The translations under genes were made by a program, and so were the position numbers. A DNA stretch of 64,000 bases from Valencia hispanica (taxonomy: Eukaryota; Chordata; Actinopteri; Cyprinodontiformes; Valenciidae): contig OY747705.1 of NCBI GenBank assembly GCA_963556495.2, forward strand, positions 8,631,001-8,695,000, in the 5' to 3' direction. Under the pieces are notes generated by a model. It was not told the DNA's origin and searched no databases. It saw nothing but the letters and a program-made list of their open reading frames with translations. Within the stretch, counting starts at the first letter, position 1, and each line of letters starts with the position of its first letter. Of this stretch, positions 45,505-51,503 are shown one piece after another.

Positions 45505-46767
45505 CTACATAAAATAGTAATAGTAATAAAACATTTTATTTGAAAGCGCCTTATCAGGACATCCAAGGACACTGGACATTAAAAACAGTAAAATAAGTAA
45601 AAAAAAACCTAAAAAACCCATAAATAAGACAAATACCACGGCAAGACAACATTGGGCTGATATGGGTCAGGTGGAATATGACTGTCTGAACAGAAGAGTT
45701 TTGAGTTTGAAAAGGTGAAATGAGTCCATGGTACCGAGGTTAGGAGGGGCGTGGATTCCAGAGATAGGAAGCAGAGCGACTAAACGCCCTGCTCCCGATT
45801 GTGACAAGACGGGCAGGGGGGACGGAAAGCTGACAGGTATGGGAGGATCGGAGTGAACGGGTCGGGATGTTTAAATGGAGGAGATCGGAGATGTATGGAG
45901 GAGCCATGTTATGGACTGCTTTGAAGGTGATGAGAAGTATTTTAAAGATGATCCTCTGTTTGACGGGAAGCCAGTGAAGTTGTTGCAGGATGGGAGTGAT
46001 ATGATGAGTGACGGGAGTCCGAGTAATCAGGCGTGCAGCAGAGTTCTGGAGGAGCTGCAGTTTCTGGAGGTACTTATTAGGGAGACCAAACAGGAGTGAG
46101 TTGGAGTAATCTATCCGAGACGTGACGAGGCTGTGAACCAGGATGGCGGTAGTTTGGGGAGTGAGAGAGGGACGGAGACGGGAGATGTTACGCAGGTGGA
46201 AGTAGGCAGACCGGGTGATGCTATTAATGGGAGACTGGAAGGACAGTGTACTGTCAAGGATGACACCCAGACTCTTAACCTGAGGGGAGGGAGGGACAAT
46301 TAAGTTATCAATGGTAATGGAAAATTTGTTGGCTTTGGAGAGAGTATGGGGTGTGCCCACGATGAGGACTTTGGTTTTAGAACTGTTCAGTTTGAGAAAC
46401 TTGGATGAGAGCCAAGAGTGGATTTCTTAGAGACAGAGGGGGAGGGAGGTAGGTGGGAGAGAGGTGGATGGTTTAGTAGAGAGGTAGAGCTGGGTGTCGT
46501 CCGCGTAGAAATTGAATTTTATGTTGTATTTACAGAGGATGTGACCAAAAGGGAGGATGCAGATGATAAAAAGGAGAGGCCCCAATACAGAGCCTTGGGG
46601 CACTCCAGCGGAGACGGGGAAGGTAATGGATTTCTGAGATTTGAATTGTATGAACTGTGTTTGATCAGAAATGTATGAAGTGAACCAGGCTATGGGAATG
46701 TGGGTGATACCAATGGATGATACTCGACTGAGGAGTACAGAAATCAACTTTAACTTATTCCTGATAT
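45505..46767 (-). mobile_element. L2/CR1-type LINE, 5' truncated
   Basis: RT on the minus strand: [20 protein letters not shown] and [15 protein letters not shown] (46427-46783 frame), then [60 protein letters not shown] and a degenerate end at 45740. The 3' end near 45505 carries an (AATAGT)-like tail. A frame break near 46400 separates the two parts. The 5' end abuts the TA of the composite at 46769. Confidence 0.85.
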
Positions 46768-46936: not shown

Positions 46937-47884
46937 AAGGCAAGCATGGCTACAGCTAGCAACTTCGAGATAGCAGACGCTCCAATCAATTTAAAGTCAA
47001 CAGTGTGGCAGCATTTTGGCTTTCCCGTGTTTACAAATGAAAAGGGTGAATGAAAAACCGACAAGATTAAAAGTGTGTGTAAGTACCGTAAGAGACTCAT
47101 AACCTACACAAATAGTACGACCAACATGTCTCAACATCTCAGTCGGCACCACAGCGAGGTTGTGTCGCCACAGACACCATCGCAGGAGCGAAGAGCAAAG
47201 GGGCAAACCACACTAGCAAAGGTATTTGCAACTCCTCTCGCCCACACCAGTCCAACGGCTCAAGCGATTACAAGGTCCATCGCTGTTCATATCGCAAAAG
47301 ACATGAGGCCATTTTCAACTGTAGAAAGTGAAGGATTTCAACAAATGATTAAAACTATTGAGCCGAAGTACTCCATTCCATCACGTCCACACTTCAGCCA
47401 GACGGTGATGCCCGAACTTTACAGGCAAGTCAAAGTATGTTGTTGAGACACTTGGAAATGCTAATAGCGTAGCAATCACTACCGACGGATGGACATTAAG
47501 GGCAACGCAAAGCTACGTGACAATTACTGCTCATGTTATCACCGCAGAGTGGGAAATGGTCAGCCTTGTGCTGCAAACGCGCACTCTGTTTGAGACACAC
47601 AGTGGGACAAACATTGGGCATGTACTGACAGATGCTGTTGCAGAATGATAACGCGAGGGACATGCATGCTGCCGTGAGAGAAGCTGGGCTGGGGCCGCAT
47701 GTCAAGTGTTTCGCCCATACGGTAAACTTGACCACCCAAGCGGGTCTGGCTGTGCCTCGCGTCTCTCGTCTTTTAGTTCGAATCAGGCGTATTGTCAGCT
47801 TGTTTCACCGTAGCCCCTCTGCAACCGCTGTTTTGGCATCCAAGTGGCCGGGAAGTGCAAAACAAAATTACATTAACCTGAAAC

Positions 47885-48135
47885 ACTTTTACATTTTTAC
47901 CGAAACACTTTTACAACTTTACCGAAACACTTTAAAAAATTTACCGAAACACTTTTACAAATTTACCGAAACACATTTACAAGTTTAATGAAACACAATT
48001 ACAAGTTTAATGAAACACATTTACAAGTTTACCGAAACACATTCACAAGTTTAATGAAACACATTTACAATCTTACCAAAACACTTTTACAATCTTACTG
48101 AAACACTTTTACAAGTTTAACAAAACACATTTACA
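47885..48135. repeat. 22-bp tandem array, left arm
   Basis: About 11 units of the type TTTACAAGTTTACCGAAACAC with small variants (AATGAAACACA), in the reverse orientation to the right-arm array. Confidence 0.9.
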
Positions 48136-48357
48136 AAGACATGACCTGGAAGTGATACTGCAGAGATGAGGTTAGGGTCGGGACAAGACCAAAGTAGTAA
48201 CAGTAATGGAATCGATCCTGCCAGCAGCTCAATCTGCAGAGATGTTTTGCCCGTTTTTCCGAATCTATTTTCAAGTTTTAGGGGGAACAGGTCTGATGGC
48301 GTTTCTGATATCTACTTCAAATTAATCGCTTTTTCTGCGGTAGAATCCGGCATTATT

Positions 48358-48615
48358 TTATTTAGTTTTCACGGTCCGTAAAGACAGGCGGACACTGTGA
48401 AGCCGTTCCATCATGTCAACAATCACACTGTATGAGTGGCCTTCGTTTAAATACTTTACGAGGCAGTCCATAAAACCGACGTCTTCTCCCTCTCCCTTCT
48501 CAAAGTCCAAACTATGTCCACAATCACCACAAAATGTCCCTAAAACTTGAAAATAGATTCCGCAAAACGGGCAAAACATCTCTGCAGATTGAGCTGCTGG
48601 CAGGATCGATTCCAT
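48358..48615 (-). CDS. Small zinc-ribbon protein in the foldback core
   Basis: ATG at 48615, stop at 48358, 85 residues: MESILPAAQSAEMFCPFCGI, then two C-x-x-C pairs (CPFC..CGDC) forming a zinc ribbon, an acidic spacer, and MDCLVKYLNEGHSYSVIVDM..LSLRTVKTK, which looks like a helix-turn-helix. The pattern resembles N-terminal DNA-binding modules placed before integrase-like domains of eukaryotic DNA transposons; that is inference. The first about 30 codons are mirrored on the plus strand in the left inner arm (from about 48206, CPFF in place of CPFC). Possibly the truncated first exon of a parental transposase. Confidence 0.55.
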   Translation of the reverse strand: MESILPAAQSAEMFCPFCGIYFQVLGTFCGDCGHSLDFEKGEGEDVGFMDCLVKYLNEGHSYSVIVDMMERLHSVRLSLRTVKTK

Positions 48616-48689
48616 TACTGTTACCACTTTGGTCTTGTCCCGACCCTAACCTCATCCCTGCAGTATCACTTCCAGGTCATGTCTTTATA

Positions 48690-50285
48690 AATGTGTTTTG
48701 TTAAACTTGTAAAAGTGTTTCTTTTTTTAACTTTTAAATGTGTTTCGGTATGATTGTAAATGTGTTTCTGTAAATTTGTAAATGTGTTTTGGTAAACTTG
48801 TAAATGTGTTTCGGTAAATTTGTAAATGTGTTTCGGTAAACTTGTAAATGTGTTTCTGTAAATTTGTAAATGTGTTTCGGTAAACTTGTAAATGTGTTTC
48901 TGTAAATTTGTAAATGTGTTTTGGTAAACTTGTAAATGTGTTTCGGTAAACTTGTAAATGTGTTTCTGTAAAATGTGTTTCTGTAAACTTGTAAATGTGT
49001 TTCGGTAAACTTGTAAATGTGTTTCGGTAAACTTGTAAATGTGTTTCTGTAAAATGTGTTTCTGTAAATTTGTAAATGTGTTTTGATAAACTTGTAAATG
49101 TGTTTCTGTAAATTTGTAAATGTGTTTCGGTAAACTTGTAAATGTGTTTCTGTAAATTTGTAAATGTGTTTCGGTAAACTTGTAAATGTGTTTCAGTAAA
49201 TTTGTAAATGTGTTTCGGTAAACTTGTAAATGTGTTTCTGTAAATTTGTAAATGTGTTTCGGTAAACTTGTAAATGTGTTTCAGTAAATTTGTAAATGTG
49301 TTTCGGTAAACTTGTAAATGTGTTTCGGTAAACTTGTAAATGTGTTTCTGTAAAATGTGTTTCTGTAAACTTGTAAATGTGTTTCGGTAAACTTGTAAAT
49401 GTGTTTCGGTAAACTTGTAAATGTGTTTCTGTAAAATGTGTTTCTGTAAATTTGTAAATGTGTTTTGGTAAACTTGTAAATGTGTTTCGGTAAACTTGTA
49501 AATGTGTTTCTATAAACTTGTAAATGTGTTTCGGTAAACTTGTAAATGTGTTTCTGTAAATTTGTAAATGTGTTTTGGTAAACTTGTAAATGTGTTTCGG
49601 TAAATTTGTAAATGTCTTTCAGTAAACTTGTAAATGTGTTTCGGTAAACTTGTAAATGTGTTTCTGTAAATTTGTAAATGTGTTTCGGTAAACTTGTAAA
49701 TGTGTTTCGGTAAACTTGTAAATGTGTTTCTGTAAAATGTGTTTCTGTAAACTTGTAAATGTGTTTCGGTAAACTTGTAAATGTGTTTCGGTAAACTTGT
49801 AAATGTGTTTCTGTAAAATGTGTTTCTGTAAATTTGTCAATGTGTTTTGGTAAACTTGTAAATGTGTTTCGGTAAACTTGTAAATGTGTTTCTATAAACT
49901 TGTAAATGTGTTTCGGTAAACTTGTAAATGTGTTTCTGTAAATTTGTAAATGTGTTTTGGTAAACTTGTAAATGTGTTTCGGTAAATTTGTAAATGTCTT
50001 TCAGTAAACTTGTAAATGTGTTTTTGTAAATTTGTAAATGTGTTTCGGTAAACTTGTAAATGTGTTTCTGTAAAATGTGTTTCTGTAAACTTGTAAATGT
50101 GTTTCGGTAAACTTGTAAATGTGTTTCTGTAAAATGTGTTTCTGTAAATTTGTAAATGTGTTTTGGTAAACTTGTAAATGTGTTTCGGTAAACTTGTAAA
50201 TGTGTTTCGGTAAATTTGTAAATGTGTTTCGGTAAACTTGTAAATGTGTTTCTGTAAACTTGTAAATGTGTTTTGGTAAAATGTT
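48690..50285. repeat. 22-bp tandem array, right arm (about 1.6 kb)
   Basis: About 72 units, alternating between GTAAACTTGTAAATGTGTTTCG and GTAAATTTGTAAATGTGTTTCT types, with interspersed 15-bp short units (GTAAAATGTGTTTCT). A larger period is visible: the short-unit landmark recurs near 48968, 49348, 49731 and 50064, giving spacings of about 380, 383 and 333 bp. Confidence 0.93.
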
Positions 50286-51503
50286 AAAGTGTTTCAGGTT
50301 ATTGTAATTTTGTTTTGCACTTCCCGGCCACTGTAAAAAGGCGCTTAACCAGGACAACCTGGACAAGCTTATTATTGATGTAACAACACGCTGGAACAGC
50401 AGTCTGGATATGGTGGAACGTTATTTGGAGCAACAAGTGGCTGTGGCAGCTGCCCTGCTCAGCGCAGACAAAAGACGAAATTCTTGGGAAATCGACACAC
50501 TGGATAATTATGACATTCGTGATGCTGAGGACGTCGTGAAACTGCTAAAACCTCTAAAAACAGCCACCACTGTGCTCAGTGATGAACACAGCCCCACTGT
50601 CTCCCTCAGACTGACCCTGAAGCACATGACTGAGAAGAGCATGGAGCATAATGAAGAAGACTCAGCCACAGTGACTTTTATGAAAACCGCTATCCTGAGC
50701 AATATGTCTGGCAGATATGCCCAGGAATACCACTACCTGCTAGAGTGCACTGCAGTTGACCCCAGATTTTGCACCCTTCCTCATCTAGAGGAAAACCAGC
50801 GTTAGGATGTGTTCCACAGGCTGAAGGCTAAAGCTGTGCAGCTACATAACCAGGTATTAGCTATATTCTTTTTTTGTTGTTGTTGATATTTCTAATGCTG
50901 TAAAATGTTCTTGGCTTTAAATAACATTTAGTAGGCTAATTCATATTCAACAAATGCAAAAAAGCATGTTATTTTTGCCTATTTAGCTTTTATTTATATA
51001 TTGATTGGCAAAGTTTTTCATGTTTTACTGCTGTCTATAAACCAGCTTACGTGTGGAGAATACAAGTGATGGAAGAGCAGAACAGAGTGCTTCAACACCT
51101 GCAGCAGAGAAGTTTGCTGAACTGAGAGAAAAAGCCACGCCACGCCACAGCCCCCTCCTCTCAAGAAAAGAGCCTTAGAAGATCTTCTAGAGGGGACTTT
51201 TGTGGCACCTGCACAGGCAGCTCCAGGCAACCACATGAACGGGATTGAGACTGAAATCTCCAGGTACAGAAGTGAAGCACCAATACCTCTTACAAGCTGT
51301 CCACTCAAGTGGTGGAAGGAGAATGGTAAGATCCACCTATTTCTTTCTCCTCTTGCAAAAGCATATCTCACCGCACCAGCCACTTCTGTACCAAGTGAAC
51401 GCGTCTTCTCAACTGCAGGGGACATTGTGACTTTGCAAAGATCACAGCTTTTACCTGAAAATGTTGACATGCTCATCTTTCTGAAGAAAAACATGTCATC
51501 ATG

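What the first reader, a model, noticed from the sequence alone, without database searches (positions are those of the whole stretch)
47845..50330. Foldback element with mirrored zinc-ribbon core and asymmetric 22-bp arrays
The sequence shows nested inverted symmetry: 45-bp ends, 22-bp arrays in both arms (about 250 bp versus 1.6 kb), 144-bp inner arms about 97 percent identical, and a loop. One side of the inner palindrome encodes an 85-residue CxxC-CxxC plus helix-turn-helix-like protein; the other side carries its mirrored first 30 codons. This fits an inverted duplication of the 5' end of an unknown DNA transposon. Foldback elements with tandemly repeated arms are known from Drosophila (FB, Galileo); I know of no such fish element. 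This is the best candidate here for an undescribed element.
Basis: partly seen in the sequence, partly recalled or inferred. Interest (0 to 1): 0.8.

Follow-up and report, generated by a model that had tools for sequence, protein, structure and literature searches.

The report
Fold-back relic of a fish IS3EU transposon
This is one copy of a large family of non-autonomous, hairpin-shaped jumping genes in what is probably a fish genome; it descends from a known class of cut-and-paste transposon (IS3EU), and its arms are built from a hypervariable 22-base repeat, much like fold-back elements known from flies.

Summary
In detail: 47844-50335 is a fold-back element with inverted ends, 22-bp arrays in both arms, a 97% complementary inner palindrome and a partial CxxC-CxxC + HTH-like frame. 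It is neither single-copy nor an assembly artefact: the end motif occurs 750 times in the own genome (reversed-motif control 0), and 40 of 40 scored core copies are 96-100% identical. Of 42 two-ended copies, 39 begin and end with TA and 33 have exact 6-bp target duplications. The parent is not unknown. Copies with the same units, one with the full terminus, run into a transposase (Pfam rva_4, E 2e-20) widespread in ray-finned fishes; TA..TA ends plus 6-bp duplications are published marks of IS3EU/GingerRoot. So it is a non-autonomous IS3EU-type derivative whose 3' inner part was replaced by an inverted copy of the 5' leader and about 26 codons. Array asymmetry points either way between copies. 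Six empty hAT sites show the host site; the window copy lost about 12 bp at its left junction. Architecture and dynamics resemble Galileo of Drosophila, in an unrelated transposase superfamily.

The parts
47844..50335 (-). whole fold-back element (strand = that of the partial transposase frame)
   Evidence: inverted ends, mirrored architecture in 33 other two-ended loci, empty host sites
47844..47888 (+). left terminal inverted repeat, first 4 nt (TACG) lost
   Evidence: compared with other copies
50291..50335 (-). right terminal inverted repeat, terminus TGTA kept
50336..50341 (.). remaining copy of the 6-bp target duplication AAAAGG (left copy deleted)
   Evidence: six of six fetched empty hAT sites read ..CATCCAAGCAAAAGGCGC..
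47880..48136 (+). left (mirror-arm) array of the 22-bp unit, 11-12 copies
48688..50295 (-). right (ORF-arm) array of the 22-bp unit, 67 to 71.5 copies, 382-bp higher-order repeat
48100..48283 (+). inner palindrome, mirror arm: leader and about 26 codons of transposase (ATG at 48206)
   Evidence: (97% complementary)
48538..48721 (-). inner palindrome, parental 5' arm
   Evidence: aligns with parent copy L082
48284..48290 (.). about 7-nt filler at the inverted-duplication junction (parent sequence stops at GCCATCAGAC on one side, GTTTTAGGG on the other)
   Evidence: read
48361..48615 (-). partial transposase frame, 85 residues: zinc ribbon CPFCG..CGDCG and HTH-like segment
   Evidence: 42 of 73 residues identical to fish transposase P0001, E 4e-24

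Best explanation
The element is a non-autonomous fold-back member of an IS3EU/GingerRoot-type DNA transposon family, probably in a fish. Shown: the same terminus, 22-bp units and N-terminal coding sequence as genomic copies that continue into a DDE-type transposase; 6-bp target duplications; one inverted-duplication junction in the consensus of 30 cores. Inferred: the founder arose when an internally deleted copy, whose two ends already were inverted repeats (TIR, units and a ~31-nt boundary block), had its 3' inner part replaced by an inverted copy of the 5' leader and first codons, by template switching or arm-to-arm conversion during break repair. The founder was then multiplied in trans by the parental transposase, which probably binds the 22-bp units through its zinc-ribbon/HTH N-terminus. 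The arrays afterwards grew and shrank independently in each arm by slippage or unequal exchange.
For: 750 ends with <=2 mismatches, backwards control 0. Core copies 96-100% in 40 of 40 scored, of 413 candidates. 6-bp duplications: 33 of 42 exact, 6 more with 5 of 6; control that never pairs an element with itself: mean 0.05, max 2.1. 39 of 42 have TA at both ends. Copies L080, L081, L082 carry units plus frames of 294, 298 and 292 aa; L082 has the terminus (1 mismatch in 33) and L081 a partial one. Pfam rva_4 at E 1.2e-20, 5e-16 and 2e-20. L082 aligns to the window sense strand from the leader to GCCATCAGAC, where the junction lies. 498 protein relatives, of which 120 listed, the named ones nearly all fishes. 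IS3EU marks (TA..TA, usually 6-bp TSD) from PMC10045372 section 3.3. Empty site in 6 of 6 fetched hAT copies.
Against: No copy was seen with both transposase exons intact and both ends; L080 showed no terminus; the parental 3' end is inferred from derivatives (L040, L075, L077). No Repbase IS3EU sequence was available for comparison, so equating rva_4 with IS3EU rests on termini, TSD length and recall. Nothing shows that the protein binds the 22-bp unit; the unit's conservation is overstated because units were collected by similarity to the consensus. The sign of arm-to-arm conversion is weak (3.54% within versus 3.82% between elements, p 0.0006). 9 of 42 copies lack an exact duplication, and the window copy lacks the left one.
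Confidence: 0.9

Rival explanations
1. A fold-back element of a Drosophila-type lineage (FB/Mutator or Galileo/P superfamily) or of another, unknown superfamily.
For: Same look: long, internally repetitive inverted arms of variable length (PMC3573991 passages).
Against: 6-bp duplications, not 7 (Galileo) or 8-10 (Tetris) as in the passages; the linked transposase is rva_4.
Confidence: 0.03
2. Two full elements inserted head to head, or one nested in another, with later internal deletion, gave the palindrome.
For: A mirrored core can arise that way; the junction has a short filler (read).
Against: No internal terminus in the window element at up to 3 mismatches (only the two outer ends). L077 carries the parental 3' subterminal block outside a small mirrored segment, which fits stepwise growth inside one element better, though L077 is a single locus and may be a recombinant.
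Confidence: 0.2
3. Assembly artefact or a single rearranged locus.
For: Palindromes and long arrays are prone to mis-assembly; array length in any one copy (67 units here) could be off.
Against: The mirrored architecture recurs at 33 other two-ended loci, 27 of them with exact 6-bp duplications.
Confidence: 0.01

Closest known systems
IS3EU/GingerRoot superfamily of DNA transposons (PMC10045372, section 3.3 and passages seen)
   Same: TA..TA termini, 6-bp target duplication, parent transposase with an integrase-like core and no HHCC motif seen (CxxC..CxxC plus HTH-like N-terminus instead)
   Different: The window copy keeps only an N-terminal fragment; long arms of 22-bp repeats and a mirrored 5' core, for which I found no IS3EU description in the searches made (one paper holds 'foldback' and 'IS3EU', passages unrelated). 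Repbase was not searchable.
Galileo (P superfamily, Drosophila; PMC3573991 passages, PMC3688188 abstract and outline)
   Same: Tandem repeats inside the TIR differing in number between the two arms (F group); longest TIRs in non-autonomous copies; leader region (F1) recruited in inverted orientation before TIR2; transposase binding sites identified in the repeats
   Different: P-type THAP transposase, 7-bp duplications, repeat unit about 210 bp in the F group instead of 22 bp
Tetris (fold-back element of Drosophila virilis; PMC4079207 passages)
   Same: Non-autonomous fold-back element; repeat-bearing arms (from title and passages)
   Different: 8-10 bp duplications, suggested Mutator origin, no autonomous copy found there

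Membership tests
IS3EU/GingerRoot | TA..TA termini | tested here: met
   39 of 42 two-ended copies have TA at both ends; criterion from PMC10045372 section 3.3. The window copy has lost its left TA.
IS3EU/GingerRoot | usually 6-bp target site duplication | tested here: met
   33 of 42 exact, control mean 0.05
IS3EU/GingerRoot | integrase-like DDD/E transposase core in the parent | tested here: met
   rva_4 in L080, L081, L082; D164, D223, E264 invariant in 17 relatives, that they are the triad is my reading
IS3EU/GingerRoot | no N-terminal HHCC motif | tested here: met
   by inspection: N-terminus is CxxC..CxxC plus helices; Pfam shows no HHCC-domain hit
IS3EU/GingerRoot | transposase clusters with Repbase IS3EU proteins in a tree | not tested
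   no Repbase sequences to hand
IS3EU/GingerRoot | window copy encodes its own transposase (autonomous member) | tested here: not met
   frame of 89 residues with stop: non-autonomous
Galileo / P superfamily | THAP-type P transposase and 7-bp duplications | tested here: not met
   rva_4 transposase, 6-bp duplications
Fold-back (structural class, not a superfamily) | long, internally repetitive inverted arms enclosing a short loop | tested here: met

The most novel reading that the evidence does not exclude
Fold-back architecture with an expandable array of transposase-binding units has arisen independently in the IS3EU superfamily in a vertebrate, and is selected because longer arrays and mirrored ends make non-autonomous copies better substrates for synapsis than the parent, so that the arrays behave as a tunable copy-number trait.
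Probability: 0.3. Interest if true: 0.6.

Novelty: new variant of a known kind. Interest (0 to 1): 0.42.

Why it matters
It extends fold-back architecture, which the papers seen here discuss for fly elements of P and Mutator type, to an integrase-like transposase superfamily in what is probably a fish, with parental gene copies, a possible intermediate, empty sites and many derivatives in one assembled genome. That makes a comparative question testable: do repeated transposase-binding units in terminal arms arise convergently because they help transposition? It also names the source of a dispersed 22-bp repeat and of long palindromes that may cause breakage or rearrangement.

Tried and rejected
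protein search with the 85-residue fragment found nothing (the tool's length limits exclude full-length relatives); solved by using the L082 frame. Pfam on the fragment gave only sub-threshold hits, mostly zinc ribbons; translated the wrong frame, not used; its first shuffle control (mean 0.8 exact, max 5) let elements pair with themselves; replaced; arm comparison mis-oriented part of the loci; discarded and redone. AlphaFold model of P0001 is poor in the core (mean pLDDT 56.7, 17 sequences), so no fold search was run; profile A1 finds no solved structure at E 0.01. Five PF24764 hits fetched first (L069-L073) showed no such zinc ribbon in the frames printed and were set aside; separate exons were not looked for. 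L083 seemed to lie in a 1714-aa frame but that is a run of N; not pursued. Considered and rejected: satellite array alone, nested insertion (kept as a rival), assembly artefact.

Full report
1. The observation. The window element is as described, with small corrections. The 29-bp end motif occurs twice in the 64-kb window, inverted, at 47844-47872 and 50303-50331, with none in 100 shuffles. The 22-bp arrays lie at 47880-48136 and 48688-50295. The inner palindrome is 184 nt at 97% with 254 nt between. The minus-strand frame 48358-48627 encodes a CxxC..CxxC and HTH-like protein.

2. It is a family. The end motif with up to 2 mismatches occurs 372 times forward and 378 times reverse in the own genome (1.29 Gb, 29 contigs); the backwards control gives 0. 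The core 48140-48680 has 413 first-look candidates; of the 40 scored, all 40 match over essentially the full length at 96-100%, the 100% row being the window itself. The protein has 679 candidates, 150 of them scored; the 150 listed matches are 85-100% identical. Copy numbers of the fold-back form alone were not counted.

3. Termini and target duplication. Paired copies show 6-bp duplications just outside TACGGTGGCC... Among 42 distinct two-ended elements in the loci held, 33 have identical 6-bp flanks, 6 have 5 of 6, 2 have 4 of 6, 1 has 3 of 6. Pairing left flanks with right flanks of other elements gives a mean of 0.05 exact matches, at most 2.1. Flanks compared at 4, 5, 7 or 8 bp agree fully in 1, 0, 0 and 0 of 42. 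TA stands at both ends in 39 of 42; TACGG and CCGTA together in 25.

4. The insertion site of the window copy. The join of the two flanks matches 13 places end to end (of 28 rows, 26 candidates). Six of the 13 were fetched, and all six read CATCCAAGCAAAAGGCGC. The window reads CATCCAAG-TGGCC...CCACTGTA-AAAAGGCGC. So the insertion duplicated AAAAGG, and the left junction lost about 12 bp: one duplication copy, about one host base and the first 4-5 bases of the element.

5. The parent. A search with a 42-residue piece from a longer derivative (L075) found copies whose frame runs on. Of four places fetched from it, three (L080, L081, L082) carry 22-bp units directly next to frames of 294, 298 and 292 residues, and the fourth (L083) is mostly N. 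L082 also has the terminus (TACGTTGGCC.., 1 mismatch in 33) and L081 a partial one; none was found in L080. These frames match Pfam rva_4 integrase core at E 1.2e-20, 5e-16 and 2e-20. In L080 a further piece downstream (..QFWMDLFADLRDTGHFNGS..), like the C-terminal part of the relatives, looks like a second exon. The L082 frame has 498 protein relatives; the best 120 are listed, each with PF24764, the named ones nearly all ray-finned fishes, best Astyanax mexicanus at 68%. The window fragment is identical to that protein at 42 of 73 residues. In 17 full-length or near-full relatives D164, D223 and E264 (numbering of P0001) are invariant; that these are the catalytic triad is my reading. PMC10045372 (passages; section 3.3 read) gives TA..TA termini and usually 6-bp duplications for IS3EU, and unites IS3EU with GingerRoot. 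That rva_4 proteins are IS3EU/GingerRoot transposases is recalled, not tested against Repbase.

6. Anatomy of the derivative. L082 and the window sense strand align from the leader to GCCATCAGAC; there the window passes through about 7 nt of filler into an inverted copy that starts at GTTTTAGGG (read). The same junction is in the consensus of 30 cores, which suggests one founder; single copies vary by a few bases there. Internal deletions with a different, presumably parental 3' block also exist (L040, L075). In L077 that block shares about 31 nt with the leader of its own 5' arm, and inverted units follow the block in L075, so the parent probably had units and this block at both ends. L077 has the 3' block followed by a short mirrored piece of leader end and first codons, a plausible intermediate or a recombinant.

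7. Dynamics. In 33 mirrored copies plus the window, units per arm run from 1 to 61 (window 11 and 67); the ORF arm has more in 15, the mirror arm in 16, equal in 3. Mirrored means: zinc-ribbon motif or leader motif found on both strands; 29 of the 33 meet it by the zinc ribbon, 27 have exact duplications. The remaining 9 of 42 are not mirrored by this rule. The sample is biased: L009-L038 were fetched by core similarity. Of 11 distinct two-ended elements met by the end motif alone (the ten in L039-L068, and L007 = L046/L047), 7 are mirrored, 1 has the 3' block, 3 are other; those loci reach only 1.5 kb from the motif, so longer elements drop out. Of 13 elements over 1.5 kb examined, the 382-bp period is in the window copy only; L005 has a 289-bp one. 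Unit spacing is 22 bp in 1194 cases, next commonest 25 bp in 31. Positions 1-6 (AAACAC), 8-14 (TTTACAA) and 16-19 (TTTA) are 85-99% uniform, positions 7, 15 and 20-22 only 49-76%; units were picked by similarity to the consensus, which inflates this. Thirty cores (the window and the 29 most similar) differ from their consensus by 1.6% on average. Arms of one element are slightly closer than arms of different elements (3.54% versus 3.82%, p 0.0006), while the consensuses of the two arms differ at two positions. Arm-to-arm conversion is thus at most occasional.

8. How it works. Shown: shared terminus, units, N-terminal exon, target duplication, common junction. Inferred: mobilisation in trans by the parental transposase; binding of the 22-bp units by the zinc-ribbon/HTH part; array change by slippage or unequal exchange; origin by break repair with template switching between pre-existing inverted ends. 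Galileo gives precedents: tandem repeats in the TIR differing between the two arms, recruitment of the leader region in inverted orientation before the other TIR, longest TIRs only in non-autonomous copies (PMC3573991, passages), and transposase binding sites identified in the repeats (PMC3688188, abstract and outline).

9. Novelty. Fold-back elements, IS3EU elements and TIR recruitment are each known. The combination was not found in print in the searches made here: 'foldback' + 'IS3EU' gives one paper with unrelated passages; 'IS3EU' + 'transposon' 32 papers, 15 seen as listing; 'IS3EU' + 'Danio rerio' 2 papers; 'foldback', 'fish' and three more terms 25 papers, 15 seen as listing; a looser search, 110 papers, 8 seen as listing, none of the 8 holding 'IS3EU'; a four-term search on fold-backs in vertebrates none. 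IS3EU is reported in a teleost table with 17838 copies in one column, which I take to be zebrafish (PMC4746887, one passage). Repbase could hold this family under an IS3EU-N name; that was not checkable.

Noticed in passing
47075-47840 and 50336-50805: The host of the insertion is a hAT-like transposase gene by eye (Hermes DNA-binding domain hit below cut-off, E 0.005, on 47075-47443; no hit on the other pieces); 13 places match the flank join end to end.
   Followed up: partly
45740-46360 minus: Reading frame resembling the C-terminal part of a fish LINE (recalled resemblance; no Pfam hit).
   Followed up: no
L026 1197-2366; L038 826-2961: Other family copies with eroded left ends, like the window copy; could be scars of one-sided cleavage or plain decay.
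   Followed up: no
L080 308-1217 minus: A different, integrase-like frame by eye (not searched) lies upstream of the parent copy on the other strand.
   Followed up: no
L077 813-5323: Family copy with a LINE-like frame inside it and a possible intermediate arm: parental 3' block outside a short mirrored segment.
   Followed up: partly
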